This document shows positions 1,945-16,952 of a stretch of 17,852 nt of DNA, piece after piece. The notes beneath the pieces are model-generated. The model had not been told where the DNA came from and did not search any database. It saw only the letters and a list, made by a program, of their open reading frames with translations. The DNA comes from Actinomycetota bacterium. GTDB lineage: Bacteria; Actinomycetota; Thermoleophilia; Gaiellales; Gaiellaceae. A program made the translations under genes and the position numbers. The stretch spans positions 1 through 17,852 of the forward strand of contig VAXA01000015.1 of assembly GCA_005883365.1 (NCBI GenBank), in the 5' to 3' direction. The stretch's first letter is position 1. Each line of letters begins with the position of its first letter.

Positions 1945-2095
1945 CGGGCGGCAGGTCTTCTGACTCGGGGCTCCCTCCCCCGCCGCCTTCCCGGGTTGCA
2001 ACCCAGTGGCGTCGTGGCGGGAGAGCGTCTCCCCTTACAGCGGCGGGACCGTCCCGGACTTGCACCGGAGTTCCCTCACCGCTCGCCGGTATGTG
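1945..2095 (-). promoter_or_regulatory. Cobalamin (B12) riboswitch
   Basis: Read on the minus strand, the leader of the btuF-like gene shows the conserved cobalamin riboswitch blocks in order. GGTGAGGGAACTCCGGTGCA comes first (about 2081-2062), then AGTCCGGGACGGTCCCGCC, then GCTGTAAGGGGAG (about 2042-2030), GCCACTGGG, CCCGGGAAGGCGGCGGG, and the B12 box GAGTCAGAAGACCTGCC (about 1966-1950). The element ends about 37 nt before the GTG start. A short CCTC segment lies just before AAGGAGG and could pair with it, so control at translation initiation is possible; that step is inferred. In the known family, adenosylcobalamin binding lowers expression of uptake genes. Confidence 0.96.
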
Positions 2096-2100
2096 GCGGG

Positions 2101-2109
2101 AATCTAGCA
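2101..2109 (-). promoter_or_regulatory. Probable extended -10 promoter element of the B12 transport transcript
   Basis: On the minus strand TGCTAGATT reads as TGn followed by TAGATT (4 of 6 to TATAAT, and fits the actinobacterial TANNNT form). It would start RNA near 2094, exactly where the riboswitch begins. No good -35 is visible, which the extended TGn may offset. It shares the CTAG core with a plus-strand -10 candidate. Confidence 0.4.
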
Positions 2110-2569: not shown

Positions 2570-2788
2570 GTGGAGCAGAGCCTCTCCGACCGGCGCTTCG
2601 ACCTGATCCTCGAGCGGCTCGACCGGATCGGGGACGAGCTCGCGAAGACGAACAAGCGCCTCGACAACGACGAGAACTTCCTCCGTCTCGCCCGGGAGCT
2701 CGCGACGCTGAACGAGTCGCTGCAGGCGCTCGCGTATGCCGCCCTCGGCCAGCAGGCGCCGCAGGTCCGCCGCCGCCGCTCGGCCTAG
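2570..2788 (+). CDS. Small hypothetical protein, probable coiled coil (72 aa)
   Basis: GTG start at 2570, preceded by AGGATGAGG that overlaps the end of the HAD-like gene, so translation is probably coupled. The protein is charged and helical: heptad-like leucine/isoleucine spacing runs from about residue 6 to 55 (FDLILERLDRIGDELAKTNK, then ENFLRLARELATLNESLQAL). It ends in a basic tail, VRRRRSA. I recognise no family. The reading frame agrees with a protein-like composition, unlike the Arg/Ala-rich shadow frames around it. A soluble oligomerising helical protein is a fair description; no function is claimed. Its TAG stop shares a CTAG with the stop of the convergent RAYT gene. Confidence 0.6.
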   Translation: MEQSLSDRRFDLILERLDRIGDELAKTNKRLDNDENFLRLARELATLNESLQALAYAALGQQAPQVRRRRSA

Positions 2789-3351
2789 CGGCAGCAGCCC
2801 CGCCATGGCGTGTCCGCCGAGGACCTGCCCCGGTGCCAGGCACCGGGACGTGGCGCCAAGGGACATGCGCCGCACGGGACGTCGGCGGCGTTCACAAATT
2901 CGAAGGATCCGGCGACGCCGATCGTCTTGCCGTAGCTGCTCCACAGCCAGTCCTCGGGGCGCTGGACGAGACCCGCTCCGACCGGGTTCCTCGCCACATA
3001 GCGGAACGCCTCGAGAACCGCCTCGGGCGTCTCCTTGCGCCTCGACCAATACCGGTCGCGCACGAGGTAGCCGGCCCGCCCATGCCGATCGTTGAAGCGC
3101 CTCGAGTAGCCGCCGACGAGCCGATGCATCCCCGCGGAGAGCGAGTTGTCGGGGAGATCGATGATCGCATGCCAGTGCGTCGTGAGCAGGCAAACCGCGA
3201 TGCACCGCCAGGCAAACCGGTCGATCGTCGCGACGAAGAGCCGGAGCCATGTCAGGCGATCGAGGTCGTCCTGGAAGTAGACGGCAGCTCCGGCCGCACC
3301 GTTGCCGACGTGCTGGATTCCGGGAGCGAGATCACGAGGAGCTCGTGGCAC
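2785..3351 (-). CDS. REP-associated tyrosine transposase (RAYT), Y1/HUH transposase family
   Basis: A 188-residue single-strand transposase-like protein. It opens with MPRAPRDLAPGIQHV, the usual RAYT/IS200-like 'PR-PG-xHV' start. The HUH motif is THWH (H59 and H61). The segment FRYVARNPVGAGLV places the catalytic tyrosine at Y118 by comparison with E. coli RAYT (Y in DYIYINPV). WLWSSY follows at 135-140, as is typical. The start is GTG 3351, chosen because it gives the canonical N-terminus. It is flanked on both sides by inverted copies of a GGTGCC-W-GGCACC palindrome, the expected substrate. The last ~20 residues are encoded by the left palindrome and DNA beyond it, so the native C-terminus may have been shorter. 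RAYTs are single-copy, domesticated relatives of IS200/IS605 TnpA that scatter REP sequences; all key residues seem present here. Confidence 0.85.
   Translation of the reverse strand: MPRAPRDLAPGIQHVGNGAAGAAVYFQDDLDRLTWLRLFVATIDRFAWRCIAVCLLTTHWHAIIDLPDNSLSAGMHRLVGGYSRRFNDRHGRAGYLVRDRYWSRRKETPEAVLEAFRYVARNPVGAGLVQRPEDWLWSSYGKTIGVAGSFEFVNAADVPCGACPLAPRPGAWHRGRSSADTPWRGCCR
2829..2847. repeat. REP-like palindrome, left copy
   Basis: CCCGGTGCCAGGCACCGGG is a perfect 19-base palindrome with 9-base arms around a central A. It is followed on the plus strand by GACGTGGC. It lies inside the last codons of the RAYT frame, and 41 bases after the stop of the plus-strand coiled-coil gene. It could also act as a transcription barrier, although no T-run follows. 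Confidence 0.8.
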
Positions 3352-3501: not shown

Positions 3502-4920
3502 CTACGCCTTGCGGAGGCGCCAGATGTCGAGCACGCCGCTCGTCGCGTGGTGGTTCGCATCGCCTTCCGGGAGTGCCACCCGGCCGTCGATGACGATCGG
3601 GCTGTTCCAGTGCCCCGAGCCGGCGCTCAGCATTGCGACGAGCTTCCCGCTCGCCGGCCGGTAGACGCGCAACCCGGCGCCGCCCGGGTCGTAGACCCAG
3701 AGCAGGCCGCCGGCGACAACCGGGCTCGTCCCGCCGTGCCCCACTCGCCAGACGGGATGGAGCCGCCCCTTCGCGAGCGACCACGCCTGCGTCGCGCCTC
3801 CATCGGCCGCGAACATCCAGGCGCGCTTCCCACTCCGCCACACCGCGGGCGCCGTGAAGAGATCCGTGCCGGACGGCGTCGAGACGATCTGGAGCTCGTG
3901 GCCCGTGTGCGCCGCCGTGCCGCGCAACCGCGCGAGCGAGAGGAGCCGGATCTTTCCGTCCTTGCCGCCCTGCGCGATCAGGTTCGACGTGAGATAGACG
4001 GGTGAGGTGGAGCCGAGGTCGAGATCGCTGGAGTTCAGCTGCTCGGTGTTCGTCGGCGTGTAGTTCCCCACCAGCTTTGCCTTCGCCGACAGGACGACAA
4101 CCGCGTCGCCCCAGTTCGTGCGGCCGTCCCAGGGTGCATTGCCCGTCGCCACGAGCAGGTTGCCGCTGCGCGGCACCACGACCGCCCCGGCGCGTCCCCA
4201 GATTGCCGAGTCGCTCGCCGGGCACCGCGAGGGCGCCAGGAGTCCGTGCTGGTTGGAGCAGAGCGAGTTCCAGACGTGCAGCAGCCGACCGTTCCCGGCA
4301 GCTATGACCACTACGTGTCCCTGATAGGGCGGCGCGTCGCCGATGTAGCCGCCGGTCGTGGCGATCACGTGTCCGCCCGCGAAGTTGAGCGACGCCGCGA
4401 TCTTCTCGCGCGACGGCAGCTTCGTGATCCGACGGCGCCACACGGCGTGACCGGTCGCGACCGAGAGCTTCTGGATCCGTCCGTCAGGCGACGCGGCGTA
4501 GATCCACCTGCGGCTGGGATCCGCGACCGGGGTCGCTGTCGTGATCTGCGCCGAGCCGGCCCAAGAGGAGTAGCCGGGCGGTGTCCACCGCCAGAGGATC
4601 TGCCCGCCCGTCGCGTCGATCGCGAGCGTGATCCCGTACGTCGCCGTGACGAAGAATGCGTCGTGGGACGCGCCGCCGACCATGACGCCGCGCAGGTAGA
4701 TCGCGGAGGAGTCGACCGTGCCCGGCAGCCGAACCTGCTGGCGAATCAGCGACCCGGCGTTCGCGGCGGTGATCCCGGTCGCGTGCGGATCGTCGTTGCT
4801 GCGGCGAGCGTCCCAGCCGAAGCGGGTCCAGTCGCCGCCGGAGGTCACGATCGCCTTCCGGGCGCCGCGGACGCCGCCGGTCGAGGCACCGCTGCCACAG
4901 CCAGCGAGCACGGCTCCCAC
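3502..4920 (-). CDS. PQQ-type beta-propeller lipoprotein (start uncertain, probably upstream of 4920)
   Basis: About 472 residues from the first ordinary start, GTG 4920. The body is a series of beta-propeller blades of the PQQ-enzyme/BamB type, for example GITLAIDATGGQILWRW, RRWIYAASPDGRIQKLSVA and GHVVVIAAGNGRLLHVW, with a second half of similar blades. A lipobox LAGC sits only eight residues from GTG 4920, which is too short for a signal peptide. In the same frame upstream, ITSRSAASLALILAVGAVLAGC reads as an excellent lipoprotein signal, but no ATG, GTG or TTG precedes it. ATT at 4962, with GAGG four bases before, is the best alternative start. The gene overlaps or abuts the RCK gene and is the last of the long minus-strand run. 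PQQ-dependent catalysis is not shown; many such proteins are scaffolds or of unknown role. Confidence 0.8.
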   Translation of the reverse strand: MGAVLAGCGSGASTGGVRGARKAIVTSGGDWTRFGWDARRSNDDPHATGITAANAGSLIRQQVRLPGTVDSSAIYLRGVMVGGASHDAFFVTATYGITLAIDATGGQILWRWTPPGYSSWAGSAQITTATPVADPSRRWIYAASPDGRIQKLSVATGHAVWRRRITKLPSREKIAASLNFAGGHVIATTGGYIGDAPPYQGHVVVIAAGNGRLLHVWNSLCSNQHGLLAPSRCPASDSAIWGRAGAVVVPRSGNLLVATGNAPWDGRTNWGDAVVVLSAKAKLVGNYTPTNTEQLNSSDLDLGSTSPVYLTSNLIAQGGKDGKIRLLSLARLRGTAAHTGHELQIVSTPSGTDLFTAPAVWRSGKRAWMFAADGGATQAWSLAKGRLHPVWRVGHGGTSPVVAGGLLWVYDPGGAGLRVYRPASGKLVAMLSAGSGHWNSPIVIDGRVALPEGDANHHATSGVLDIWRLRKA

Positions 4921-4934
4921 AGCGAGGATCAGAG

Positions 4935-5930
4935 CTAGCGACGCAGCAGAACGCGACGTAATTCGTCCTCTTTGCCGGGCTCGAGGATCGCGAGTACCTG
5001 ATCCCCTGCCTCGAGCACGGTCGAGCCGACGGCGATCTCGGCCCGTCCGCCTCGCATGACGGAGATGAGCCGCGAGCCCTCCGGCAGCGAGAGCGCCTCG
5101 ATGCTCTGCCCCGCGGAGGGCGACTCGCCGTCGATCTGCACCTCGACGATCTCGAGGTTCTCGCCGCGCAGCTCCAGCAGGTGGATGAGGTCGTGCTCCG
5201 GCACCTCGTGCTCGACAAGCGCCATCACGCTCGACGTCGCGCAGATGGTGGGCGAGATCCCGAGGAGGTCGAAGTGCGGCTGGTTGCGTGGATCGTTCAC
5301 GCGCGCGATCACCTTCGGGACGCCGTACTTCTCGCGCGCGATCTGGCCGATGATCATGTTGTCCTCGTCGTCGCCGGTGAGCGCGAGCACGACGTCGGGC
5401 GGGCGGGCGATTCCGGCCCGCTCGAGGACGTAGAGCTCGGTCGCGTCGCCGCGCTGCACCTGGTGCTCGAACTCGTCTTCGAGCTGCTCGTAGCGGTCGC
5501 GGCGCTGCTCGATCAGCGTCACCTCGTTCCCGAGGCGCAGCAGCGAGCGCATCACGTTCGCGCCGACCTTGCCGCCGCCGGCGACGATCACGTACATCAG
5601 CCGGCGACCTCCTCGGCGGCGGCCGGCTGCGGAAGCGGGATCGCGCACGTCCGCGCCGCGTCCATCAGGCGCTACCTGGCCGATGATGATGTTCGTGTTG
5701 TCGCCGTCGGTGGCGACGACGACGGCGTCGGCCTCCTCGATGCCGGCCTCCTGCAGCAGGTGGGCATCCATGCCGTGGCCGACGATGAACGTGCCCGGCC
5801 AGTTCTCGCCTAGGCGCGAGAGCGCGTCCTCGTTCTCGTCGACGACGGTCACGTCCCAGCCCTCCTGGAGGAGCTGGAGCGCGATCGTCGAGCCTACGCG
5901 GCCGCAGCCGATGACAAGCGCCTTGAGCAT
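4935..5930 (-). CDS. Fused RCK/TrkA-type potassium regulatory protein (truncated first RCK domain joined to a complete TrkA/KtrA-like protein)
   Basis: This 331-aa frame holds two TrkA-type units. Residues 1-87 are an RCK_N domain with the nucleotide site GCGRVG (8-13) and VVDEN (29-33), but it breaks off after NTNIIIGQVA. A 24-residue Gly/Arg-rich linker follows. From M112 (ATG 5597) comes a complete ~220-aa protein: YVIVAGGGKVGANV, EVTLIEQ, then DDEDNMIIGQIAREKYGVPK, and a TrkA-C domain from about 255. Such proteins bind NAD(H) or ATP/ADP and gate potassium transporters. Many actinobacteria have two adjacent full-length genes here (M. tuberculosis ceoB/ceoC), so this fusion looks like a deletion. 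The start is ATG 5930, 17 nt after the APC-Usp gene. No TrkH/KtrB channel is seen; its partner may be one of the neighbouring APC carriers. Confidence 0.85.
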   Translation of the reverse strand: MLKALVIGCGRVGSTIALQLLQEGWDVTVVDENEDALSRLGENWPGTFIVGHGMDAHLLQEAGIEEADAVVVATDGDNTNIIIGQVAPDGRGADVRDPASAAGRRRGGRRLMYVIVAGGGKVGANVMRSLLRLGNEVTLIEQRRDRYEQLEDEFEHQVQRGDATELYVLERAGIARPPDVVLALTGDDEDNMIIGQIAREKYGVPKVIARVNDPRNQPHFDLLGISPTICATSSVMALVEHEVPEHDLIHLLELRGENLEIVEVQIDGESPSAGQSIEALSLPEGSRLISVMRGGRAEIAVGSTVLEAGDQVLAILEPGKEDELRRVLLRR

Positions 5931-5947
5931 CAGATGAGCGTAGCTCG

Positions 5948-7831
5948 CTAAACCTCTTCGAGCACGCCCTGGGGGAAGGCGACGACGAGCACCTCCGCGG
6001 GCGCCTTGCGGAGGACGTAGTCGACGGTCGGCGAGAAGAAACGCGATTGCCGGCGCCAGCGCGGCGAGGAGCCGAGCACGATGAGGTCGGCGCCCGTCTC
6101 CTCGGCGGCCTGCACGATCGCCTCGCCGATCGAGCGCGCGCGGATGGAGCGGCCCTCGACCGCGACGCCGTGGTCGGCGCCGAGGGCGGCCGCCTCGGCG
6201 AGCGATGCCGCCGCCCGCTCCTCCTGGTCGAAGAGCTCGGCGTCGAGCGGCTGGTCGAGCGGCACGCGGATCACGTTCAGTGCCACGACTCCGGCGCCGC
6301 GCTCCTGGGCCAGCTTCACCGCCGTCGCGATCATCTCCTCGCCGATCTCGCCGAGCTTCATCGGCACGAGGATCTTCGAGAACTCGGCGTGCGGCAGCTC
6401 ACCCTCGACGACGGGCTCGACGTGCTCGAGGAGGCCGGTGCCGCGGCGGCGGCGAACGAGGAGATAGACGACGCCGCCGGCAGCGAGCCAGATCGGACCG
6501 CCGTAGCGGGCGCCGATGTGCGTGGTCATCGCCGCGACGAAGATCGCCGCCGTCGCGAGGGCGCCGACGACCGCCGGCAACGGGACGTCCGCGCCTCGCA
6601 CGCGCACCGAGAGCGGCACCCGGAAGGGACGCTCGAGATCCGGCTTGCTGAAGCGGAGCTTCACGACCGCGAGCTGTGCCGCGGTGAAGGCGACGAGGAC
6701 GCCGAAGCTGAAGAGGCTCGCGAGGAAGCCGACCGGATTCGTCGCGAAGGCCGTCGAGAGCAGGAGGACGATCGAGATCGTCGCGGCCGCGATCACCGTC
6801 TCGGGGGAGTGCAGGCTGCGGCGGCTTAGCCGGCCGAAGCGACGCGGGAGCTGGCCGTGCTCCGCGAGCGAGAAGGCGAGGCGTCCGAAGCCGGAGTTCG
6901 AGGTCGCGGCGGCCGTGAGGAGGATGAGCGCACCGGTCAGGCCGACGTAGACCCGCAGCGCCCGCTCCACCCAGAAGGCGACGTGCGGGCCGAGCGCGTA
7001 GACGACTCCCATCAGCGGGGCGCGCTGCCAGGTCGTCCCGAGCTGCGTCGTCCCGTGCGGGGCCGGGAAGGCGGAGAGGGCGACGAGCCCGACCAGCACG
7101 GTGACGAGGACGACCGCTCCCATGCCGGTGAACAGGCTCCGTGGCAGGTCGCGCCCGGGCTGCCGCGTCTCCTCCGCGAGGTTCGCCACGGTTTCGAGCC
7201 CCGTGTACGCGAGCAGCGCGAGCGGGAGCGCGAATGCGAGCTCGTGCCACGACGGCTGCGTGCCGAGCGACAAGCCGCGCCCGAGCGCGCTCGGCGAGAA
7301 GAGGAAGGCGAAGCCCAGCACCACGAGCAGCAACTGCGTCACGAGGTCGAGGACCGGCACGGCGAGGCTGAACGAGTAGAGACGCGTCTGGCGGAACAGG
7401 CGGACGATCGCAATGGCCACGATCACGACGCAGCCCACGATCAGGTCGCCCGGGTGCCGGGCGATCGAGTGCACGCCGAGCGCGAGCCCCAGGTAGTGCG
7501 GGAAGAACAGCGCCGAGAGCGCGATCACGATCAGGTAGTCGAGGAAGAGCGCCCAGCCCGTGAGGAATCCCGCGAGGTCGTTGAAGGCGACGCGGACGAA
7601 GGTCGCGGCGCCGCCCGTCTCGCCGATCGTCGTCGTCCCTTCGGCGTATGACAGCGTCACGATCAGGAAGAGCACGCCGACGATACCGAGGACGGCCGGC
7701 GTCAGCCCGAGCGCGTGCAGGGCGACGATGCCGAGCGCGAAGTAGAGAGAGGACGCAACCTCGCCGTACGCGACGGAGGCGAGCGCCGGAGCGTCCAGCG
7801 CGCGTTGCAGCCGCGGCAGCTTCCTGGCCAT
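5948..7831 (-). CDS. APC-superfamily permease with C-terminal Usp-like domain (second of two)
   Basis: 627 aa. Residues 1 to about 460 are an APC-fold carrier with roughly 12 membrane segments, starting VAYGEVASSLYFALGIVALH and including the family-typical SYAEGTTTIGETGGAATFV and YTGLETVANLAEETR. From about residue 483 there is a Usp-like domain (EFSKILVPMKLGEIGEE ... ADLIVLGSSPRWRRQSRFFS ... APAEVLVVAFP). It lacks the G-2x-G-9x-G(S/T) ATP-binding pattern of ATP-binding Usp proteins. Aligning SSLYFA with SSVAYA of the KimA-like protein in this window puts E24 where KimA has its K+-binding aspartate. The substrate is unknown: amino acids, or a cation given the potassium-related neighbours. The start is ATG 7831, 21 nt after the small membrane gene; no strong ribosome site is visible. 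Confidence 0.85.
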   Translation of the reverse strand: MARKLPRLQRALDAPALASVAYGEVASSLYFALGIVALHALGLTPAVLGIVGVLFLIVTLSYAEGTTTIGETGGAATFVRVAFNDLAGFLTGWALFLDYLIVIALSALFFPHYLGLALGVHSIARHPGDLIVGCVVIVAIAIVRLFRQTRLYSFSLAVPVLDLVTQLLLVVLGFAFLFSPSALGRGLSLGTQPSWHELAFALPLALLAYTGLETVANLAEETRQPGRDLPRSLFTGMGAVVLVTVLVGLVALSAFPAPHGTTQLGTTWQRAPLMGVVYALGPHVAFWVERALRVYVGLTGALILLTAAATSNSGFGRLAFSLAEHGQLPRRFGRLSRRSLHSPETVIAAATISIVLLLSTAFATNPVGFLASLFSFGVLVAFTAAQLAVVKLRFSKPDLERPFRVPLSVRVRGADVPLPAVVGALATAAIFVAAMTTHIGARYGGPIWLAAGGVVYLLVRRRRGTGLLEHVEPVVEGELPHAEFSKILVPMKLGEIGEEMIATAVKLAQERGAGVVALNVIRVPLDQPLDAELFDQEERAAASLAEAAALGADHGVAVEGRSIRARSIGEAIVQAAEETGADLIVLGSSPRWRRQSRFFSPTVDYVLRKAPAEVLVVAFPQGVLEEV

Positions 7832-7852
7832 CGAACCGCGAGCGTAGCCCGT

Positions 7853-8026
7853 CTATCGGCGGCGCAACAGGTACAGGCGCCCAATTCCCAGCGCGACAAA
7901 CAGCGCGCCGAGGAGGTAGCCCGTCGAGCCGCCGCCTGCGGCGACCGTCTCGGCGACGAGCGCGATCCCGAGCCCGATCGCGACGAGGCCGAACACGAAG
8001 ACGGACCTCTTGTAGAGGCCGCTCAC
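7853..8026 (-). CDS. Small two-helix membrane protein (57 aa)
   Basis: Short frame starting GTG 8026, whose GTGA overlaps the TGA stop (8025-8023) of the upstream APC-Usp gene, so translation is probably coupled. The protein begins with a basic stretch (VSGLYKRS). It has one hydrophobic helix (VFVFGLVAIGLGIALVAETV), a Gly-rich turn (AAGGGSTG), a second helix (YLLGALFVALGIGRLYLL), and ends RRR. A helical hairpin with both ends in the cytoplasm is expected by the positive-inside rule. I recognise no family. It lies between two APC-Usp genes, 21 nt before the second, so an accessory subunit is possible but unproven. Confidence 0.7.
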   Translation of the reverse strand: MSGLYKRSVFVFGLVAIGLGIALVAETVAAGGGSTGYLLGALFVALGIGRLYLLRRR

Positions 8027-9924
8027 GCGGCTCGCTCGCGCGGCGTCGCGACCATGACGCGGCAGGGCGCGTGCCGGAGGACGAAGTCGACGGCGTCGCC
8101 GAAGATCTGGCGCCGTCCGCGCTGCAGCCGCACGCGCCGCGGGCCGGCCATGACGATGATCTCCGAGTTGCGCCGGATCGCCTCGTCGACGATCGCGCGG
8201 CCGATGTTGCGGGTGCGCGAGATACGGCCGATGACGCGCACGCCGTACGAGTCGCCGATCGCCCGCGCCTCGTCGAGCTGCTCGTTCGCCTCCCGCACCT
8301 CCTCCGGCAGGTCGGTGTCGAGCGGCATGTCGAGAGGAACCTCGATCGCCGTGAACGCCACGATCGACGCGCGCCGCTCGGCGGCGAGCCGGCAGGCGAA
8401 GTCCATCGCCTCGTCGGAGGCGTAGCCCGGCGCGATCGGTACGAGGATGCTGCGGAACTCGAGGGCCGCGGCGACGCCGTACTCGACCGGCGCGCGCACG
8501 GTCTCGCTCAGCGGCACGTTCAGCACCCGGCGCCGATAGACGACGTAGATGACGAAGCCGACGGCGATCCAGCCGAGCCCCGCGTACCGCGTGCTCGGGT
8601 ACTGGATCACGACGTCGAGCCACGACAGCCCCGTCCCGACGCCGCCGATCACCGCGAACAGGGGCCAGTCCACACCGCGCCAGCGGAAGTTCGGCCGCGC
8701 GCGCCACGGGATGTCCTGCCCCGCGCTCCGCCGCCGCAACTGGATCACCGAGGCATGCGCGATCGTGAACGAGAGCATCGCGCCGAACGAGTACATCGTG
8801 CCGAGGAAGTTCGTCTTGCCCGGCAGGAGAACGAGGATCGAGATGAAGCCGGCGAAGACGACGAGCGAGATCCACGGCGTCTTGAACTTCGGATGCAGCC
8901 GTCGGAAGAGGGATGGGAGCTGCCGGTAGCCGGCCATCGCGTACGTGATCCGCGACGCACCGATCACGCCGGCGTTCGTCGCGATGAAGAGGATCGTCGC
9001 CGCGAGCAGGCCGACGTAGACCTTGATCACGGAGAGGAACGCCCCGCCGATGCCGAGATGCTCGACGAGGCCGAGCACCGGATCGTTCGCAAAGCCTCCG
9101 TGCGACGGCTGCAGTCCGAGCAGGGTCTGCTGGTGGCCGCCGATCAGGTGGACGGGCAGCGCCGAGAGCGCGATCAGCGGCAGCGTGAAGTAAATGGCGA
9201 AGACCGCGATCGCGACCATCAGGATCGAGCGCGGGATGCTCCGCACCGGATCGCGCGCCTCCTCCGAGAGGTTCGAGACCGTCTCGATTCCCGTGTAGGC
9301 GATCATCCCGACCGGGATCGCAAGCAGGAAGTGGCCCCAGCTCGGCGCCGTGCCGAAGTGGACGTTCGTCGCGAGCGTGTGCGGGCTGAAGACGAGAGCG
9401 AAGCCGAGCAGGACGAGCAGCACCTGCGTGCCGAAGTCGACTGCAGCAAGGACGACGTTGATCCGGGCCGACTCCTGGATCCCGACGACGTTGAGCGCGA
9501 CGAGGACGACGATGACGACGGCGCCGCCAATGATGTCCCAGGGGTTCTGCTTCAACGGCTCCCAGAAGATCGAGAGGTAGTGCGGCACGAAGAACGCCGA
9601 GATGGCGATCGTGATCACGTAATTGAGCATCTGCGCCCAGGCGGCCCCGAACGAAACGACCTCGTTGAAGGCGTGCCGCGCGAAGCTCGAGGAGCCGCCG
9701 GCCTCCGGGAAGCTGACCGTCCCCTCCGCGTACGTCGCCGCCGTGGCCGCGAAGAAGAGGCCGGCGATGACGAAGACGACGGGCGTCAGCCCGAGCGCGA
9801 AGAAGGCAGTTACCCCGAGCGCGTAGTAGATAGACGAGCCGACGTTCCCGTAGGCGGTGGCGAAGAGGGCGTTCGCGCCGAGAACGCGCTCGAGCTCGTG
9901 CGCCTGGCGACGCCGTCGTGCCAC
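8023..9924 (-). CDS. APC-superfamily permease with C-terminal Usp-like domain (first of two)
   Basis: 633 aa from GTG 9924. Residues about 15-465 form an APC-fold carrier: FATAYGNVGSSIYYALGV, then TYAEGTVSFPEAGGSSSFAR (64-83), AISAFFVPHYL and AYTGIETVSNLSEEARDP (209-226). From about residue 490 a Usp-like domain follows (FRSILVPIAPGYASDEAMDF ... EIIVMAGPRRVRLQRG ... HAPCRVMVATP), without the glycine-rich ATP motif. Relative to the KimA-like protein, N27 falls where KimA has its K+-binding aspartate. The frame is open further upstream, but residues before 9924 are Arg/Ala-rich shadow of the preceding gene. The chosen start matches the N-terminus of the second APC-Usp protein. It overlaps the stand-alone Usp frame by 115 nt. 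Substrate unknown. Confidence 0.85.
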   Translation of the reverse strand: MARRRRQAHELERVLGANALFATAYGNVGSSIYYALGVTAFFALGLTPVVFVIAGLFFAATAATYAEGTVSFPEAGGSSSFARHAFNEVVSFGAAWAQMLNYVITIAISAFFVPHYLSIFWEPLKQNPWDIIGGAVVIVVLVALNVVGIQESARINVVLAAVDFGTQVLLVLLGFALVFSPHTLATNVHFGTAPSWGHFLLAIPVGMIAYTGIETVSNLSEEARDPVRSIPRSILMVAIAVFAIYFTLPLIALSALPVHLIGGHQQTLLGLQPSHGGFANDPVLGLVEHLGIGGAFLSVIKVYVGLLAATILFIATNAGVIGASRITYAMAGYRQLPSLFRRLHPKFKTPWISLVVFAGFISILVLLPGKTNFLGTMYSFGAMLSFTIAHASVIQLRRRSAGQDIPWRARPNFRWRGVDWPLFAVIGGVGTGLSWLDVVIQYPSTRYAGLGWIAVGFVIYVVYRRRVLNVPLSETVRAPVEYGVAAALEFRSILVPIAPGYASDEAMDFACRLAAERRASIVAFTAIEVPLDMPLDTDLPEEVREANEQLDEARAIGDSYGVRVIGRISRTRNIGRAIVDEAIRRNSEIIVMAGPRRVRLQRGRRQIFGDAVDFVLRHAPCRVMVATPRERAA

Positions 9925-10460
9925 GGCGGGACTGTAGTGCGCGCCGCGGTCGCTCCAGTGCCCGCAACCGGGCCGGTGGCGATCATCACGCGGCACGGCG
10001 CGTCGCGGACGAGCAGGAGCACCTCGCGGGAGAACGGGAGGTGGAAGCCCCGCCGTGACTCGACCGGCGCGCCGACGACGACGAGCTCCGCGCGGCGTTC
10101 CGCGGCGATGCGCGCAACGTCCTCGCCGAGGCTCCCCGGCCGCGTGCGAACGATCTCCCGCCGTACTCCGACGCCGTAGGAGGTCGCCACGGCAGCCGCC
10201 GACTCGAGCCGCTCCTTCAAGGCCGTGAGCCGGCCCTCGAAGTGCGCGTCCAGCGGCAGCTCGCGCTCGACGACGAGCGGCGCGACGAGGACGACCTGGG
10301 CACCGCGGTCGGCGGCGAGCCGGCAGGCGAGATCGAGCGCGTGCTCCGTCTCCTCCTGCTCGAGCAGCGGCACGACGATGCTGCGGTAGGCGATCGAGCC
10401 CGTCCAACGCGCGAAGCGACGCGCTCGGCGTCGGAGCATCTTGACATCGGGGCGTTTCAT
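9810..10460 (-). CDS. Universal stress protein-like, stand-alone (216 aa)
   Basis: ATG 10460 overlaps the TGA of the KimA-like gene (ATGA), so translation is coupled. A basic N-terminus (MLRRRARRFARWTG) precedes a Usp-like alpha/beta domain at about 25-163: YRSIVVPLLEQEETEHALDL, GVRREIVRTRPGSLGED, AELVVVGAPVE, then DAPCRVMIATGP. The G-2x-G-9x-G ATP motif is absent. It resembles the Usp tails of the two downstream permeases, and its basic start looks like the membrane-to-Usp linker of such fusions, so it may be a detached tail. After residue ~166 the sequence (TTVPPWHDGVARRTSSSAFS...) runs 115 nt into the next gene in another frame and looks non-native. Either the overlap is real or the stop has been lost by mutation or frameshift. 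Confidence 0.75.
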   Translation of the reverse strand: MKRPDVKMLRRRARRFARWTGSIAYRSIVVPLLEQEETEHALDLACRLAADRGAQVVLVAPLVVERELPLDAHFEGRLTALKERLESAAAVATSYGVGVRREIVRTRPGSLGEDVARIAAERRAELVVVGAPVESRRGFHLPFSREVLLLVRDAPCRVMIATGPVAGTGATAARTTVPPWHDGVARRTSSSAFSARTPSSPPPTGTSARLSTTRSG

Positions 10461-12739
10461 CGGAGCAGCTGGTACGGGACGGAGGCGAGAATCACGTTCG
10501 GCTCGACGAGCAGCAGCCGCTTCACGTAGAGGGCGCGCTGGTTGTGGAGGACCCGCGCCCAGCCGCGGAGGACGAGCTCCGGCAGGACGACGAGCACGTC
10601 GTGGCCGTCGCCGGTGAGCTCGCGGAGGTAGGCGAGGAGCGGGTCTCCGATGTCCCGGTACGGCGCCGCGAGCACCTCGAGCGGCACCCGTGCGTCCTCG
10701 GCGAGCCACTTGCGCCTCATCTCCGCCGCTTCGCTCTCGTCGAAGGCGAAGTTGACCGCGCGCGTGTCCGGCAGTCCGACGGCCTCGGCCCAGTTCAGGG
10801 CCCGCATCGAGGCGGCATTGGCGCCGGAGACGAAGATCCGGACCGCGAGCGGCCGGCCGCCCGGGCTCTCATCGACGGTCGGCACGTCCGCGACGACCAC
10901 GCCCGACTCCGTCAAGAGGCGCAGCTTGAGCGCGAACTCGAACGGATGCCGCGCCTCCTCGGCGAGCGAGCGGCGTCGGAGCTGCTCGGGGACGACGACG
11001 GTGACGAAGTCCGACTCGCCGCGCGGCAGCCGCCAGACCTGCTCGAGCACGGCGTCGACGGTGCCCCCGTCCGGGTCGAGCGTCTCGAGCAGCGGCGCGC
11101 CGCCGACCAGGTGGAACCAGCGCGGGCCGATCCCGGGGTCGCTGCCGTGGCGCGGGACGTGGATTGCGCGGAACCCGTCCGGCGCGATCGTCCGGGCGAA
11201 GGCGAGGGCACGCTCGGCCGCCGGGTCGAGCTTCTCGACGACGAGCAGGGTGCTGTTGCGGGCGCCGGGAGCCGACGCGACCGCCGCGGCTCCCGCGGTC
11301 AGCCTGCGGCCGATACGGCGGTAGTGGCGCCGCACGCCGAGCATCGCGAAGACGAGCACCGGGATCGCGACCGTCACGAGCCAGGCGCCCTCGGCGAACT
11401 TCGTCCAGACCACGATCGCCGTGACGAGGCCGGTGGCCGTCGCGCCGAGGCTGTTCACGACCGCGCGCCCGCGCCAACGGGGGCCCCGGGTGCGCAGCCA
11501 GTACCGGACCATCCCGGCCTGCGAGAGCGTGAAGGCGGTGAAGACGCCGATCACGTAGAGGTGGATGAGGCTGTTGGTGTTCGCCTTGTAGATCGCGAGC
11601 AGGGCGGCCGCGGCCCCGGCGAGCACGAGCATCCCGTTCGAGAAGACGAGCCGGTCGCCGAGGTTCGAGAATTGGCGCGGCGCGAAGCGGTCCCGCGCCA
11701 GCAGCGCCGAGAGCCGCGGGAAGCCCTGGAACGACGTGTTCGCCGCGAGGATGAGGATCAGGAGCGTCGTGGCCTGTACGGCGTAATACATGAAGCCGCC
11801 CATCGATCCGGGCTGGAACACGGCCCGGGCGATCTGCGAGACGACCGAGCCCGTCGCGCTCGGCTGCGCATGCACGTGGATCGCGAGAAACGAGACGCCG
11901 AGGAACATCACGATCGCCATGACTCCGAGCGCGCCGAGCGTCTTGGCGGCGTTCTTGCCCTGCGGTTGCCGGAAGGCGTTGACCCCATTCGCGATCGCCT
12001 CCACGCCGGTCAGGGCGGTCGATCCCGAGGAGAACGCACGGAGGAGGATGAAAACTCCGACCGCGCCGGCGCCCGCGGGCAGCGCATGCGGCACGACCGC
12101 GCGGTGCAGGTGCCCGGTCGCGTACTGGACTAGCCCGATCGCGTCGAGCGAGACGATGGCGGCGATGAAGGCGTACGTCGGGAGCGCAAACAGCAATCCC
12201 GACTCACGCACGCCGCGGAGGTTCGCGAGCACGATCACGCCGAGGCAGGCGAGCGCCAGGCTGACGCGATGCGACGAGAGCGACGGGGCGAACGACGTGA
12301 TGGCGAAGATCCCCGCGGAGATCGAGACGGCGACGGTCAGCACGTAGTCCGTGAGCAGCGCGGCGGCCGCGACGAGGCTCGGGGCCGTGCCGAGGTTCTC
12401 GCGCGCGACGATGTACGCGCCTCCGCTGGTCTCGTAGACGCGCACGGTCTGCCGGTACGAGAGGACGACGATCGCGAGCAGGCAGGCGATCCCGATCGAG
12501 ATCGGCAGAACGAGGTGCAGCGCGCCGAGCCCGGCGGCCCCGACGAGCACGACGAGCGCCTCCTCCGTTGCGTATGCCACGGACGAGAGCGGATCGGAGG
12601 CGAAGATCGGCAGCGCGAGCCACTTCGGCAGCAGCGTCTCGTGCATCTGGCCGGTGCGCATGGGCCGGCCGACGAGCACGCGTCGCAGGCGCCTCGGCTC
12701 GAGGGCCGTCTCCACGTCCGGACGCGTGACCGTGCTCAC
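10457..12739 (-). CDS. kimA: KimA-like (YdaO-type) potassium importer, APC superfamily, with cytosolic Usp-like tail
   Basis: 760 aa. It aligns by eye along its whole length with B. subtilis KimA, a high-affinity K+ (H+-coupled) importer inhibited by c-di-AMP. Shared blocks are ASDPLSSVAYATEEAL (47-62), SYRQTVRVYETSGGAYIVAR (94-113), DYVLTVAVSISAG (131-143), AFSSGSTALTGVEAI (235-249), NLGDRLVFSNG (359-369), and the end LHNQRALYVKR ... ASVPYQLLR. D49 and Y56 match the Asp and Tyr that contact K+ in KimA (D36/Y43 there, from memory); T244 matches a third ligand region. About 12 membrane segments lie between residues 38 and 470, and the tail from ~495 is the Usp-like cytosolic domain that binds c-di-AMP in KimA. 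The tail is longer than in B. subtilis (607 aa protein). The start is GTG 12739 with only weak ribosome-site match (GGGAAC). It lies 67 nt after the KdpE-like gene. Confidence 0.88.
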   Translation of the reverse strand: MSTVTRPDVETALEPRRLRRVLVGRPMRTGQMHETLLPKWLALPIFASDPLSSVAYATEEALVVLVGAAGLGALHLVLPISIGIACLLAIVVLSYRQTVRVYETSGGAYIVARENLGTAPSLVAAAALLTDYVLTVAVSISAGIFAITSFAPSLSSHRVSLALACLGVIVLANLRGVRESGLLFALPTYAFIAAIVSLDAIGLVQYATGHLHRAVVPHALPAGAGAVGVFILLRAFSSGSTALTGVEAIANGVNAFRQPQGKNAAKTLGALGVMAIVMFLGVSFLAIHVHAQPSATGSVVSQIARAVFQPGSMGGFMYYAVQATTLLILILAANTSFQGFPRLSALLARDRFAPRQFSNLGDRLVFSNGMLVLAGAAAALLAIYKANTNSLIHLYVIGVFTAFTLSQAGMVRYWLRTRGPRWRGRAVVNSLGATATGLVTAIVVWTKFAEGAWLVTVAIPVLVFAMLGVRRHYRRIGRRLTAGAAAVASAPGARNSTLLVVEKLDPAAERALAFARTIAPDGFRAIHVPRHGSDPGIGPRWFHLVGGAPLLETLDPDGGTVDAVLEQVWRLPRGESDFVTVVVPEQLRRRSLAEEARHPFEFALKLRLLTESGVVVADVPTVDESPGGRPLAVRIFVSGANAASMRALNWAEAVGLPDTRAVNFAFDESEAAEMRRKWLAEDARVPLEVLAAPYRDIGDPLLAYLRELTGDGHDVLVVLPELVLRGWARVLHNQRALYVKRLLLVEPNVILASVPYQLLR

Positions 12740-12806
12740 GTTCCCACGCTAGGTCCGCGCGACTCAGTCGGAGATCAGGATTCCGTCCGCAGGCCTCAGG
12801 AACTGC

Positions 12807-13490
12807 TCAAGACGGCGCAGCGAGCCGGTAGCCCGCGCCGGGCTCCGTGAGGATGAAGCGCGGCCGCGCGGGATCCGGCTCGAGCTTGCGCCGGAGCTGC
12901 GAGATGTAGACGTGGAGGTAGTGCGACTCGTCGCCGTAGCCCCTCCCCCACACCTCGCGCAGGAGCATCGTGTGGGTCAACAGCTTCCCGGGATTGCGCG
13001 CGAGCACGCGGAGGAGCGCGAACTCGTGCGGCGTGAGCTGGACCGGCTCGCCGCCGACCGAGACCGCGCGCTTCTCGAGATCGATCCGCAGCTCGCCGAT
13101 CTCGACGACCGGCTCGGCCGGAGCGTCGGCCCGCCGCAGCGCAGCGCGCAGACGAGCGAGCAGCTCCTCGACCCCGAACGGCTTCGTCACGTAGTCGTCG
13201 GCGCCGGCGTCGAGCGCGGCAACCTTCTCGGCCTCGTCGCCGACCACGGACAGGACGATCACCGGAGCGCTACTCCAGGTGCGCAGCTCACGGCAGACCG
13301 CGGTGCCGCTGCCGTCCGGGAGGACGAGATCGAGCACGACGGCGTCGGGCGGATTCGCGGCGAGCGCGGCGAGCGCGGCCTCGGCCGTCTCGGCAGTCTC
13401 GACCTCGTATCCCGCACCCCGGAGGCTGGCCCGCAGGGCGCGCAGGATCTGCGCCTCGTCGTCGACGACGAGGACGCGCTGGCCGCTCAC
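12807..13490 (-). CDS. kdpE: KdpE-like OmpR/PhoB-family response regulator
   Basis: 227 aa. The receiver domain has acidic pair D10/D11 (VLVVDDE), phosphorylation site D54 (VVLDLVLPDG), S81 and K103 (VTKPFG). The winged-helix domain spans about 130-225, with QLTPHEFALLRVLARNPGKL and SHYLHVYISQLRRKLEPDP, very close to E. coli KdpE (HSHYLRIYMGHLRQKLEQDP). It would bind DNA after phosphorylation by the adjacent kinase. The start is GTG 13490, which overlaps the kinase stop (GTGA); the frame is open further upstream but that part is the Arg-rich shadow of the kinase. No kdpFABC genes are in view, so the KimA-like importer 67 nt downstream is the likeliest local target. Confidence 0.9.
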   Translation of the reverse strand: MSGQRVLVVDDEAQILRALRASLRGAGYEVETAETAEAALAALAANPPDAVVLDLVLPDGSGTAVCRELRTWSSAPVIVLSVVGDEAEKVAALDAGADDYVTKPFGVEELLARLRAALRRADAPAEPVVEIGELRIDLEKRAVSVGGEPVQLTPHEFALLRVLARNPGKLLTHTMLLREVWGRGYGDESHYLHVYISQLRRKLEPDPARPRFILTEPGAGYRLAAPS

Positions 13491-14860
13491 GCGCGCACCG
13501 GGGCGCGGCGCTCGGCGAGCGGCAGGGAGAGGACTAGGTGCCCGCCCGCGGGATCGTCCTGCGCCCAGAGCCGGCCCCCGTTCGCTTCGGCGAAGCCGCG
13601 GGCGATTGCGAGCCCGAGGCCGGAGCCGTGCCCGGCTGCGCCGCGGCGGAAGGGCTGGAACAGCGCCTCCCGCTGCTCGTCGGGCAGGCCGGCGCCCGAG
13701 TCGACGACGTGGATGCGAAGCTCGGTGGCGCCGGGCTCGGCCCGGAGGAGCACGCGCGAGCCCGGCGGCGAGTAGTGGAGCGCGTTGTCGAGGAGGTTTG
13801 CGAGGACGCGCTCGACCTGGGCGGCGTCGACCTCCACCGGCGGCGTCTCGGAACCGATCTCGAGCCGGATGCGGCCGGCCTCGGCCCCGAGACCGGCGAG
13901 CGCCCGGCCGACGAGCTCGTCCACGGGCCACAACTCGCGGTGCGTCTCGACGGCGCCGGCCTCGAGCCGCGAGAGGTCGAGCAGCTGCTCGACGACACGG
14001 TCGAGGCGCGTCGCCTCGGCGCGGATCGTCTCCGCGAGGCCGAGCCTGTCCTCCGCCTCCAGCGTGAGGCCGGGGCTCGCCAGCGCGTCCGCCGAGGCGA
14101 GGATCGCCGTGAGCGGAGAGCGCAGGTCGTGGGACACTGACCGCAGGAGCGCCGTCTTGAGGGCGTCGCTCCGCCGCAGCGCCTCCGCTTCGAGCGCCTC
14201 GCCCTGGAGGCGGCTGCGCTCGACGTCCACCGCGAGGAGCGCCGCGAGCGACGGCAGGAACCGGCGCCGCACGGCGTCGTCGACTGGAGCGACCTCGTCC
14301 AGGAACAGCGTCGCGACACACCGGAGCCCGGCTTCCACCGGCAGCGCCCGCTCGCCCGGCTCCGGCGGCTGTTCACCGAGCGCAAGACGAGCGCGCTCGA
14401 GTCCGAGCACGCCCGCGGTGAGCGCCGCAAGCCGGCCGAGCTCGTCTTCGAGGCTCCTGCCGCGCAGCAGGTCGAGCGCCGCCTCGGCGAGCGCGTGCGC
14501 CTCGACGCGCCGCTGCTCGCCGTCCTCGCGGCGGGCGCGCGCCCGCGCGGCGAGCGCGCTGACCGCGAAGGCGATGGCGAGGTAGACGGCTAGCGCGAGC
14601 CAGTTCTGGCTCTCGCGCAAGTGGAACGAGTGGTACGGCGGCAGGAAGAACCAGTTGAACGCGAGCATGCTCGCGACCGAGACGACGGCCGCGAGCGCCG
14701 TCCCCCAGACGATCGCAACGGGCAGGACGGCCAGGACGTAGAGCGCGCCGAGGCTGAGCACGGGCACGTGCGGCTTCAGCAGCTCGACGACGCCGCTCAC
14801 CGCCGCGACTGCTCCGGCGCTCGCAAGGATCCCGGCGAGGAGCTTCGCCCGCGTTCTCAC
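13487..14860 (-). CDS. KdpD-like sensor histidine kinase lacking the N-terminal KdpD/Usp domains
   Basis: 457 aa. Four close membrane segments at about residues 7-108 form the KdpD membrane module (DUF4118), including FNWFFLPPYHSFHLRESQNW (68-87), a KdpD signature. A GAF-like region follows at about 120-215. The kinase core has the H box SVSHDLRSPL (H244), N box NLLDNALHYSPPGS (355-368), G1 VDSGAGLP and G2 GSGLGLAIA (412-420). Classical KdpD (about 900 aa) also has an N-terminal KdpD domain and a Usp domain that respond to K+ and ligands; these are absent here. The start is GTG 14860, 22 nt after the pyrophosphatase stop. It overlaps the response regulator start by 4 nt, so the two form a two-component pair. 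Confidence 0.9.
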   Translation of the reverse strand: MRTRAKLLAGILASAGAVAAVSGVVELLKPHVPVLSLGALYVLAVLPVAIVWGTALAAVVSVASMLAFNWFFLPPYHSFHLRESQNWLALAVYLAIAFAVSALAARARARREDGEQRRVEAHALAEAALDLLRGRSLEDELGRLAALTAGVLGLERARLALGEQPPEPGERALPVEAGLRCVATLFLDEVAPVDDAVRRRFLPSLAALLAVDVERSRLQGEALEAEALRRSDALKTALLRSVSHDLRSPLTAILASADALASPGLTLEAEDRLGLAETIRAEATRLDRVVEQLLDLSRLEAGAVETHRELWPVDELVGRALAGLGAEAGRIRLEIGSETPPVEVDAAQVERVLANLLDNALHYSPPGSRVLLRAEPGATELRIHVVDSGAGLPDEQREALFQPFRRGAAGHGSGLGLAIARGFAEANGGRLWAQDDPAGGHLVLSLPLAERRAPVRA

Positions 14861-14882: not shown

Positions 14883-16952
14883 CTAACCGTGAACGCTGAT
14901 GATGAGCGGAATGATCAGGATCGCGACGATGTTCGTGATCTTGATCATCGGGTTGATCGCGGGGCCCGCCGTGTCCTTGTACGGGTCGCCGACGGTGTCC
15001 CCGGTGACCGCGGCCGCATGGGCCTCCGAGCCCTTGCCGCCGTACAGACCGTCCTCGATCAGCTTTTTCGCGTTGTCCCAGGCGCCGCCGCCCGACGTCA
15101 TCGCGATCGCGAGGAAGAGGCCCGTCACGATCGTCCCGATCAGCAGGCCGCCGAGCATCTTCGCGTTGATCAGGCCGACGACGATCGGGAAGGCGATCGG
15201 CACGATCGCCGGCAGGATCATCGAGCGGATCGCCGAGCTGGTGACGATGTCGATCGCCGGCCCATACTGCGGCCGCTCCGTGCCTTCCATGATCCCCGGG
15301 TGCTCGCGGAACTGGCGCCGCACCTCCTCCACGACCTCGCCGCCGACGCGCCCGACCGCCTGCATGGCGAGCGAGGCGAACAGGAACGGCATCAGGCCGC
15401 CGATGAACAGGCCGGCGATCACCCAGGCGTCCGAGAGGTCGAACGTAAGGCGCGAGAGCATCGAGCCAGCCTTGGCCTGGGTGTGGAGCCCGTCGGCGTA
15501 GGAGCCGAAGAGGACGAGGGCGGCGAGCGCGGCGGAGCCGATCGCGTAGCCCTTCGTCACGGCCTTGGTCGTGTTGCCGACCGCGTCCAGCGGGTCGGTG
15601 ATCGCCCGCACCTCGTCCGGCAGGTCGGCCATCTCGGCGATGCCGCCGGCGTTGTCGGTGACCGGCCCGTAGGCGTCGAGGGCGACGATGAGGCCCGTCA
15701 TCGACAGCTGCGCCATGACCGCGACGCCGATCCCGAACAGGCCGGCGAGATGGTTCGCAACGAGGATCCCGACCGCGATCACGATCACCGGGAGCGCCGT
15801 GGCCTGCATCCCGACGGCGAGACCCTCGATGATGTTCGTCGCGTGGCCGGTTCGCGACGCGGCCGCGATCGACTTGACGGGATTCCAGCGCGTGCCCGTG
15901 TAGAACTCCGTGATCCCGACGAGCAGCGCCGTGACCGCGAGCCCGATCAGCGCCGAGCCGTAGAGGTTGCCGAACGAGAACCGGCCGGTCGTGTCGAACG
16001 CCTGCGTGACCGGGATGAAGATCAGCGCGGAGATGACGGTCGCGACGATGACGGCTCGGTAGAGCGCGTTCATGACGTTGCCGCCGGGCCGGACGCGCGC
16101 GAACTGGACGCCGATGATCGATGCGATGATCGAGACGCCGCCGATCGTCAGCGGATAGAGCCAGAGGTTCGTGCCGGTCGTCGCGGCCGCGCCGGTGACG
16201 CCGAGGAGCATCACGGCGACCGCGGTCACCGCGTACGTCTCGAACAGGTCGGCGGCCATGCCGGCGCAGTCGCCGACGTTGTCCCCGACGTTGTCGGCGA
16301 TCACGGCCGGGTTCCGCGGGTCGTCCTCCGGGATGCCCGCCTCGATCTTCCCGACGAGGTCGGCGCCGACGTCCGCGGCCTTGGTGTAGATGCCGCCGCC
16401 GAGCCGGGCGAAGACGGAGATGAGCGAGCCGCCGAAGGCGAGCCCGATGAGGTGCTCGATCGCCTTGTGCGGACTGTCGCCGATGCCGGCGGTGAGGATC
16501 CAGTAGTAGCCCGCGACTCCGAAGAGCCCGAGCCCGACTACGAGGAGGCCCGTGACCGAGCCGGCGCGGAAGGCGACGTTGAGCGCGGCCGGTAGCCCGT
16601 GGCGCGCCGCCTCCGCCGTCCGCACGTTCGAGCGCACGGCGACGTTCATCCCGATGAAGCCGGCCGCGGCCGACAGCACCGCGCCGATGAGGAAGCCGAT
16701 TGCCGTCCCCCACCCGAGCGAGTGGTAGAAGCCGAGCAGGAGGAACGGAACGATGGCGACGACCGCGATCGTCGTGTACTGGCGGCGCAGGTAGGCGGCT
16801 GCGCCCTCTTGCACGGCGCGCGCGATCTCCTGCATCCGCTCGGTACCCGCCGGCTGCCGCAGTAGCCAGACGGTGAGGCCGAGGCCGTAGAGGACGGCGG
16901 CGCCCGCGCACAGCAGCGCGAACAGCACGGCGTGATGCATGAACCAACTCAT
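14883..16952 (-). CDS. hppA: K+-independent H+-translocating membrane pyrophosphatase
   Basis: 689 aa integral membrane pump of about 16 segments that couples pyrophosphate hydrolysis to proton export. The catalytic signature is complete: [20 protein letters not shown] (194-213), then [27 protein letters not shown], and the C-terminal [20 protein letters not shown] (651-670). Within [10 protein letters not shown], lysine 463 and threonine 466 are the residues typical of the K+-independent subclass (Ala at both in K+-dependent enzymes), so a proton rather than a sodium pump is expected. Length is normal. The start is ATG 16952 with GGAGGGAG about 9 nt upstream. It is followed after 22 nt by the KdpD-like kinase, so read-through is possible. 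Confidence 0.96.

What the first reader, a model, noticed from the sequence alone, without database searches (positions are those of the whole stretch)
4935..14860. Compact potassium-homeostasis module: Kdp-type two-component pair, KimA-like importer, Usp, two APC-Usp carriers, small membrane protein and RCK protein in one run
Eight minus-strand genes follow each other with overlaps or gaps of at most 67 nt. Seen: the domain types and spacing. Known: KdpD/E senses K+ stress, KimA imports K+, RCK/TrkA proteins gate K+ transporters, and Usp-like tails of KimA bind c-di-AMP. Inferred: the APC-Usp carriers and the RCK protein belong to the same response, with RCK acting on APC-type carriers because no TrkH/KtrB is present. 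M. tuberculosis has a comparable pairing of ceoB/ceoC with an APC-type permease (Rv2690c), recalled from memory. This gene set, with three carriers bearing Usp-like tails, is not one I know as a described system.
Basis: partly seen in the sequence, partly recalled or inferred. Interest (0 to 1): 0.72.

Follow-up and report, generated by a model that had tools for sequence, protein, structure and literature searches.

The report
RCK-linked APC-type potassium uptake cassette
The window holds a real run of potassium-related genes, but its old conserved heart is a pair of "amino-acid-permease-like" carriers beside a two-part potassium gating-ring regulator, an arrangement I found no description of, which may be how many bacteria of one soil-dwelling class take up potassium without the usual Trk channel.

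Summary
Confirmed: eight minus-strand genes at 4935-14860; the run continues with an HppA pump 22 nt upstream and a beta-propeller gene 14 nt downstream. The importer is a KimA with its K+-site residues intact. The "RCK protein" is a damaged pair: relatives encode RCK_A and RCK_B (TM1088A/B type); here a 116-bp deletion cuts RCK_A and fuses the remnant to RCK_B.

Across Thermoleophilia the core is HppA - APC1-Usp - small TM protein - APC2-Usp - RCK_A - RCK_B; in this genus KdpDE-KimA-Usp is inserted into it. No TrkH was found in 16 genus genomes. Of 109 near-complete class genomes with RCK_B, 30 lack TrkH, Kup, KdpA and KimA; 28 of these have APC carriers just upstream of the RCK pair. APC1 shares five KimA/Kup K+-path residues; 13 E. 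coli APC permeases share at most two.

Best reading: an RCK-regulated APC-fold K+ (or K+-coupled) uptake cassette standing in for Trk. Transport is unproven; APC1 has Asn where KimA needs Asp, and 24 of the 30 genomes still have a K+-channel-like gene.

The parts
14883..16952 (-). HppA, membrane pyrophosphatase; GNTTK463..T466 = K12.46/T12.49, signature of K+-independent H+-PPases; ancestral upstream neighbour of the cassette
   Evidence: Pfam PF03030 E=9e-260; motif; meaning of K12.46/T12.49 from PMC10897367 passages; NCBIfam's best model is named sodium-translocating, so H+ specificity is inferred; HppA within 9 kb upstream in 27 of 30 focal genomes
13487..14860 (-). KdpD-type histidine kinase, C-terminal half only (DUF4118-HisKA-HATPase)
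   Evidence: in G006 and G015 the KdpD N-terminal domain is a separate gene beside kdpA and a KdpB-like gene
12807..13490 (-). KdpE-type response regulator
   Evidence: best NCBIfam model KdpE PRK10529, 240.8 bits, below its cut-off of 325
10457..12739 (-). KimA-type K+/H+ symporter with two tandem Usp-like cytosolic domains
   Evidence: 6s3k E=9e-118; residues equal to B. subtilis D36,Y43,D117,T121,S125,T230,E233,Y377 and R337,H579,N580,Q581 (read); S582 is Arg; extra domain about 482-630 absent in L164, L166 and B. subtilis KimA; model mean pLDDT only 62, two alpha/beta domains at 494-619 and 630-755
9810..10460 (-). stand-alone Usp protein; ORF overlaps the chosen start of the next gene by 115 nt
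   Evidence: Pfam Usp E=6e-10; no G..G(9)G[ST] motif
8023..9924 (-). APC1-Usp: APC-fold carrier with Usp tail; TM1 AYGNVGSSIYY; T,S,T,E,Y at KimA 121,125,230,233,377; the GTG start at 9924 is a choice
7853..8026 (-). 57-aa hydrophobic membrane protein, conserved position between the two carriers
   Evidence: hydropathy; homologues in 27 of 32 named actinobacterial loci with 5 kb upstream, 24 of 30 focal genomes
5948..7831 (-). APC2-Usp: second carrier with Usp tail; TM1 AYGEVASSLYF (Glu), Asp at KimA D117
5598..5930 (-). RCK_A remnant: RCK_N cut by a 116-bp deletion and fused in frame to RCK_B
4935..5597 (-). RCK_B: TrkA_N + TrkA_C, TM1088B-like, with its own ATG at 5597
3502..4920 (-). PQQ/beta-propeller protein directly downstream, next to RCK_B in many relatives too
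   Evidence: PF13360 E=5e-11

Best explanation
The locus is a potassium-uptake and osmotic-homeostasis locus built on an old Thermoleophilia cassette, HppA - APC1-Usp - small TM protein - APC2-Usp - RCK_A - RCK_B. Shown: the order, its conservation across the class, no TrkH found in the genus, and KUP/KimA-type residues in the carriers. Inferred: APC1 and APC2 are proton-coupled K+ (or K+-coupled solute) carriers, possibly a heteromer in which APC2 supplies the acidic residues; HppA makes the proton gradient from PPi even when K+ is low; RCK_A and RCK_B form a TM1088-like ring that senses nucleotides (perhaps also c-di-AMP; a diadenylate-cyclase gene is in the genome) and opens or closes the carriers instead of TrkH; the Usp tails are a second ligand switch. 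In this genus a KdpDE-KimA-Usp block was inserted between HppA and APC1, adding a K+ importer and a low-K+ type two-component pair. In the window genome RCK_A is broken, so here the ring would be RCK_B alone, or the deletion is an assembly fault.
For: Synteny: of 46 named actinobacterial loci, 42 have 2.6 kb upstream of RCK_B and 36 of these have an APC carrier there; 25 of 32 with 5 kb have two. Other K+ importers: 109 RCK_B+ class genomes >=90% complete, 30 without TrkH, Kup, KdpA and KimA; of the 30, 28 have APC upstream of RCK (26 two or more pieces), 28 a Usp domain, 27 HppA, 30 RCK_A. In 61 relatives TrkH is in 3 of 37 RCK_B+ and 21 of 24 RCK_B- genomes. Seven fetched loci hold both APC cassette and TrkH; in 6 TrkH has its own tandem TrkA, the seventh (L110) is cut by the contig end. 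Residues: T121,S125,T230,E233,Y377 are T,S,T,E,Y in KimA, Kup and window APC1; at most 2 of 5 in 13 E. coli APC permeases. Kup D23 aligns with APC1 Asn and APC2 Glu. KimA, Kdp or Trk genes lie beside the cassette in several layouts. DAC family in G000.
Against: Pfam matches AA_permease_2 in 39 of 39 carriers scanned, K_trans in none; best solved-sequence hits are amino-acid carriers. APC1 has Asn at the D36/D23 position, and D36A/N abolishes KimA uptake (PMC6994465 passages); AdiC, PotE and CadB have Asn there too. APC2 lacks T121, and only 10 of 20 sampled APC2 have Glu. T230A did not impair KimA. 24 of the 30 focal genomes have an Ion_trans_2 (K+-channel-like) match. Two of 30 have RCK without APC, and some lineages keep HppA-smTM-RCK alone. 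Class-wide, TrkH is in 47 of 131 RCK_B+ genomes. In the other 34 named loci only 7 of 29 with enough sequence have an APC upstream. Counts are not corrected for kinship. No expression or transport data.
Confidence: 0.6

Rival explanations
1. The APC-Usp carriers move an amino acid or other osmolyte (for example glutamate as counter-ion for K+), and the RCK pair couples that solute flux to the K+ or energy state; K+ itself enters by KimA, channels or unknown routes.
Against: RCK rings are known on ion channels and transporters (established knowledge); 28 of 30 genomes without four usual K+ importers keep carriers beside RCK, 4 of them (G034, G073, G133, G168) also without a listed Ion_trans_2 match; APC1 keeps the five KimA/Kup residues.
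Confidence: 0.27
2. The RCK pair regulates KimA, and the APC-Usp carriers are bystanders.
For: In G006 and G015 (and, as far as the contig goes, G002) the carriers are gone from the locus while KimA-Usp-Usp-RCK_A-RCK_B remain; KimA sits upstream of Usp-RCK in L164 and L166 and beside the carriers in L113 and L123.
Against: No KimA hit in the 20 non-genus loci or the 40, most of which have APC carriers there; KimA is found in 17 of 61 relatives but RCK_B in 37 of 61.
Confidence: 0.08
3. The RCK pair serves TrkH or channels encoded elsewhere and the carriers are neighbours by history only.
For: RCK_A/RCK_B lie beside TrkH without APC in L152, L172 and L210, as in Thermotoga (PMC4380455); several lineages keep RCK without APC.
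Against: TrkH was found in none of 16 genus genomes and, where it stands beside the cassette, has its own tandem TrkA in 6 of 7 loci, the seventh being cut.
Confidence: 0.05

Closest known systems
Trk K+ uptake system with two-subunit TrkA (TM1088A/B + TM1089 TrkH, Thermotoga maritima)
   Same: RCK_A/RCK_B of the relatives have the same split architecture; 3l4b chains are the solved relatives of that architecture, though single-chain TrkAs score higher (PMC4380455, one section and passages)
   Different: No TrkH found; the neighbouring membrane genes are APC-fold carriers with Usp tails
KimA (KUP family, Bacillus subtilis)
   Same: Window KimA is a clear member; APC1-Usp has the same fold plus a Usp-type cytosolic domain and five residues of the K+ path
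   Different: Window KimA has a second Usp-like domain; APC1/APC2 are a different APC branch, lie beside an RCK pair and have Asn/Glu at the D36 position; APC2 lacks T121
Kdp system (KdpDE, KdpFABC)
   Same: KdpD C-terminal half and KdpE; in G006 and G015 the same locus also has kdpA, a KdpB-like gene and a separate KdpD N-terminal gene
   Different: No KdpA in the window or the genome assembly and no KdpD sensor N-terminus in the gene
Mycobacterium CeoB/CeoC with adjacent Rv2690c
   Same: Two TrkA-type proteins next to an APC-type gene (APC type recalled); ceoB and Rv2690c share a fitness phenotype (PMC12216072 passages)
   Different: Not compared by sequence here; no second carrier, small TM gene or HppA is known to me there (recalled)
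E. coli Kup
   Same: TM1 VYGDIGTSPLY resembles AYGNVGSSIYY/AYGEVASSLYF; T,S,T,E,Y at the five positions
   Different: Kup has no Usp domain or RCK partner (recalled); K_trans Pfam matched 0 of 39 carriers

Membership tests
KimA | Membership by sequence over the whole transporter | tested here: met
   6s3k E=9e-118
KimA | K+-path residues D36,Y43,D117,T121,S125,T230,Y377 and H+-coupling E233 | tested here: met
   all eight identical in window KimA
KimA | c-di-AMP contacts R337,H579,N580,Q581,S582 | tested here: met
   four of five identical, S582 is Arg (its contact is through the amide group); other contacts not tested
KimA | c-di-AMP inhibition | not testable with these tools
   needs assay; DAC family match in G000
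Trk/Ktr system | RCK regulator of TrkA type | tested here: met
   TrkA_N/TrkA_C; intact pair only in relatives
Trk/Ktr system | TrkH/KtrB membrane subunit | tested here: not met
   no PF02386 match in G000 or 15 genus relatives; G000 is 78% complete
Kdp system | KdpFABC pump | tested here: not met
   no KdpA in G000
Kdp system | KdpD with N-terminal sensor domain | tested here: not met
   DUF4118-HisKA-HATPase only
KUP family (for APC1/APC2-Usp) | K_trans Pfam match | tested here: not met
   0 of 39
KUP family (for APC1/APC2-Usp) | K+-path residues of KimA/Kup | tested here: inconclusive
   5 of 5 scored positions in window APC1 but Asn at D36; window APC2 3 of 5, Phe at Y377, Glu at D36
Amino-acid APC permeases (for APC1/APC2-Usp) | APC fold and family profile | tested here: met
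   AA_permease_2 39 of 39
Amino-acid APC permeases (for APC1/APC2-Usp) | amino-acid transport | not testable with these tools
   needs assay

The most novel reading that the evidence does not exclude
APC1-Usp/APC2-Usp with RCK_A/RCK_B are a new kind of RCK-gated, APC-fold, proton-driven K+ uptake system, energised by a K+-independent pyrophosphatase, that takes the place of TrkH in much of Thermoleophilia; and APC-fold carriers are the missing membrane partners of orphan split TrkA pairs in other actinobacteria.
Probability: 0.42. Interest if true: 0.85.

Novelty: new variant of a known kind. Interest (0 to 1): 0.66.

Why it matters
RCK rings are textbook regulators of K+ channels and Trk/Ktr transporters. 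A cassette conserved across a class that puts an RCK pair beside APC-fold, KimA-like carriers in genomes without TrkH would mean the ring can gate alternating-access carriers. It also gives a concrete candidate for what two-protein TrkA systems without TrkH act on: four papers on the Mycobacterium CeoB/CeoC system contain neither the word TrkH nor TrkG in their held main text (PMC12136442, PMC6375644, PMC4553272, PMC13163235; word searches).

Tried and rejected
Rejected: 'eight genes = one conserved system'; 'RCK is a normal fused TrkA'; chance clustering. The TrkH exclusion looked near-absolute in 61 relatives but is much weaker class-wide; both are told. Profile comparison with a single Kup sequence gave nothing usable. 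Automatic alignments put KimA Tyr43 on the AYG tyrosine of the carriers; the other register (Kup D23 = Asn27/Glu24, Tyr43 = Tyr34) is favoured because Kup aligns so, the paper equates Kup D23 with KimA D36, and the model breaks TM1 at 30-31; it is not proven. APCs beside RCK in L147, L149, L150 and L159 (titles Bacillota, Chloroflexi, Anaerolinea, Ktedonobacter) lack S125 and T230, while L160, L170 and L174 keep both. The KimA model (A4) came out poor (mean pLDDT 62) and was not searched. Remaining 34 named loci (mostly Chloroflexota and Armatimonadota; L152, Candidatus Solincola, may be actinobacterial): of 29 with 2.6 kb upstream, 7 have APC, 22 a Usp domain, 2 KimA, 2 TrkH. The 46 'actinobacterial' loci are L097-L141 and L158; many titles say only Actinomycetota. 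Named loci and G genomes overlap (for example L097 is G005), so the 82 APC1 and 88 APC2 sequences hold duplicates; pieces under 1150 nt, under 200 bits or with stops were dropped. For Kup, 54 class genomes had a match, 39 over the cut-off; the 33 with E below 1e-90 were counted, and none of the other 21 is among the 30 focal genomes. G168 is counted as without Ion_trans_2 because it is not among the genomes listed with a match.
Full report
What is in the window. The eight genes and their spacing are as described, and the run is longer: HppA 22 nt upstream and a beta-propeller gene 14 nt downstream. HppA carries K at 12.46 and T at 12.49 (GNTTK463..T466), the pair that goes with K+-independent H+-pumping enzymes (PMC10897367, passages); NCBIfam's best model calls it sodium-translocating, so ion specificity is inferred. 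KimA is unambiguous. Its residues equal B. subtilis D36, Y43, D117, T121, S125, T230, E233 and Y377, and R337, H579, N580, Q581 but not S582 of the c-di-AMP site (roles from PMC10284832, one section). It has a second Usp-like domain that B. subtilis KimA, L164 and L166 lack; a poor model (mean pLDDT 62) shows two alpha/beta domains at 494-619 and 630-755. The kinase is only the C-terminal half of KdpD.

The RCK gene. Single-chain TrkAs score best, but the solved relatives with the split architecture are TM1088A and TM1088B, a two-protein gating ring (PMC4380455, one section and passages). Eight of eight relatives read have RCK_A and RCK_B in different frames, next to or overlapping each other. 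The window lacks 116 bp of RCK_A that 6 of 6 aligned relatives have. Among the 120 best hits listed, the 331-aa product comes only from this contig; longer A-B fusions of about 360 aa do exist. RCK_B keeps its own ATG at 5597.

Neighbourhood. KimA occurs in 17 of 61 relatives, one of them a fragment and one only a distant form. Within the genus three states exist: HppA-APC1-smTM-APC2-RCK (G001, G008); the same with KdpDE-KimA(-Usp) inserted (nine genomes including the window; four are cut before HppA and some are split over contigs); and KdpDE-kdpA-KdpB-like-KdpD N-terminus-Usp-KimA-Usp-Usp-RCK without carriers (G006, G015; G002 in part). In the last, the second Usp of G006 is 76% identical to the tail of window APC2. 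The RCK_B tree, one short gene, puts G006 apart from G002 and G015; G015 is sister to a genome with carriers (G007) at 100%. Other supports are modest. Outside the genus, 20 loci and 40 show no KimA hit, and most have APC1-Usp, small TM and APC2-Usp beside RCK. Among named loci outside the genus, L113 has KimA just upstream of APC1 and L123 has KimA, Usp and KdpDE divergent beside it.

Breadth. Of 46 actinobacterial loci, 42 had 2.6 kb upstream of RCK_B: 36 have APC, 41 RCK_A; of 32 with 5 kb, 25 have two APC pieces and 27 the small protein; of 27 with 7 kb, 11 have HppA inside the held flank. Of the other 34 loci, 29 had 2.6 kb: 7 APC, 22 Usp, 2 KimA, 2 TrkH.

Is it the potassium importer? 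TrkH was found in none of 16 genus genomes. In 61 relatives RCK_B and TrkH nearly exclude each other (3 of 37 against 21 of 24; Fisher p=2.7e-10), but over 199 class genomes only weakly (47 of 131 against 43 of 68; p=3e-4), and kinship is not corrected for. Among 109 RCK_B+ genomes at least 90% complete and at most 5% contaminated, 30 lack TrkH, Kup, KdpA and KimA; in 28 of 30 APC carriers end 970-1383 nt upstream of RCK_B, with Usp domains in 28, RCK_A in 30, HppA in 27 and the small protein in 24. The exceptions are G065 and G077. Twenty-four of the 30 have an Ion_trans_2 match; six do not, and four of those six (G034, G073, G133, G168) have the carriers. Seven fetched loci hold carriers and TrkH; in six TrkH has its own tandem TrkA, the seventh is cut. 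In L152, L172 and L210 the pair is beside TrkH without carriers.

Literature. The listings showed no paper describing an RCK pair acting on APC-type carriers or such a cassette; several listings were capped (12 of 910, 8 of 32) and only the held open-access library was searched. Streptomyces venezuelae is reported with two KimA-like proteins and no TrkH or KtrB (PMC10117811, passages). Four papers on the Mycobacterium CeoB/CeoC system contain neither TrkH nor TrkG in the held main text.

Verdict. A potassium locus, with a conserved core different from the one proposed. The link of RCK pair and APC-Usp carriers is strong in this class; K+ transport by them is the likeliest reading, not a shown one.

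Noticed in passing
window 1952-2102 (-): Cobalamin riboswitch (Rfam RF00174, 92 bits) upstream of a BtuF-like binding protein (1047-1913) and a BtuC-like permease (by eye; no Pfam match in the piece scanned); this block follows the cassette in several relatives too.
   Followed up: partly
window 2785-3351 (-): Weak IS200-like Y1 transposase (Pfam Y1_Tnp E=4e-4, below cut-off) between the cassette and the B12 genes; L025 has one at a similar place.
   Followed up: partly
window 10457-12739: KimA with two tandem Usp-like domains, the first without the HNQ c-di-AMP motif; possibly an intramolecular pair.
   Followed up: partly
L125, L126, L128, L188, L215: Lineages with HppA - small TM protein (weak matches) - RCK_A - RCK_B and no APC carrier between, suggesting the small protein goes with HppA or RCK rather than with the carriers.
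   Followed up: no
L209, L211: APC carriers, RCK_A, RCK_B, tandem TrkA and TrkH on one strand in a row: both kinds of system in one run.
   Followed up: no
L142, L146, L148, L151, L153, L155-L157, L163: A Usp-RCK_A-RCK_B triad with no APC, KimA or TrkH match in the held flank, mostly Chloroflexota titles; partner unknown.
   Followed up: no
L099, L023 (G006): The KdpB-like gene reads in two or three frames, so it is broken or misread in this genome.
   Followed up: no
window 17042-17851 (-): YbdK-type carboxylate-amine ligase (GCS2), cut by the contig end, 89 nt upstream of HppA; also near HppA in G005 and G007.
   Followed up: no
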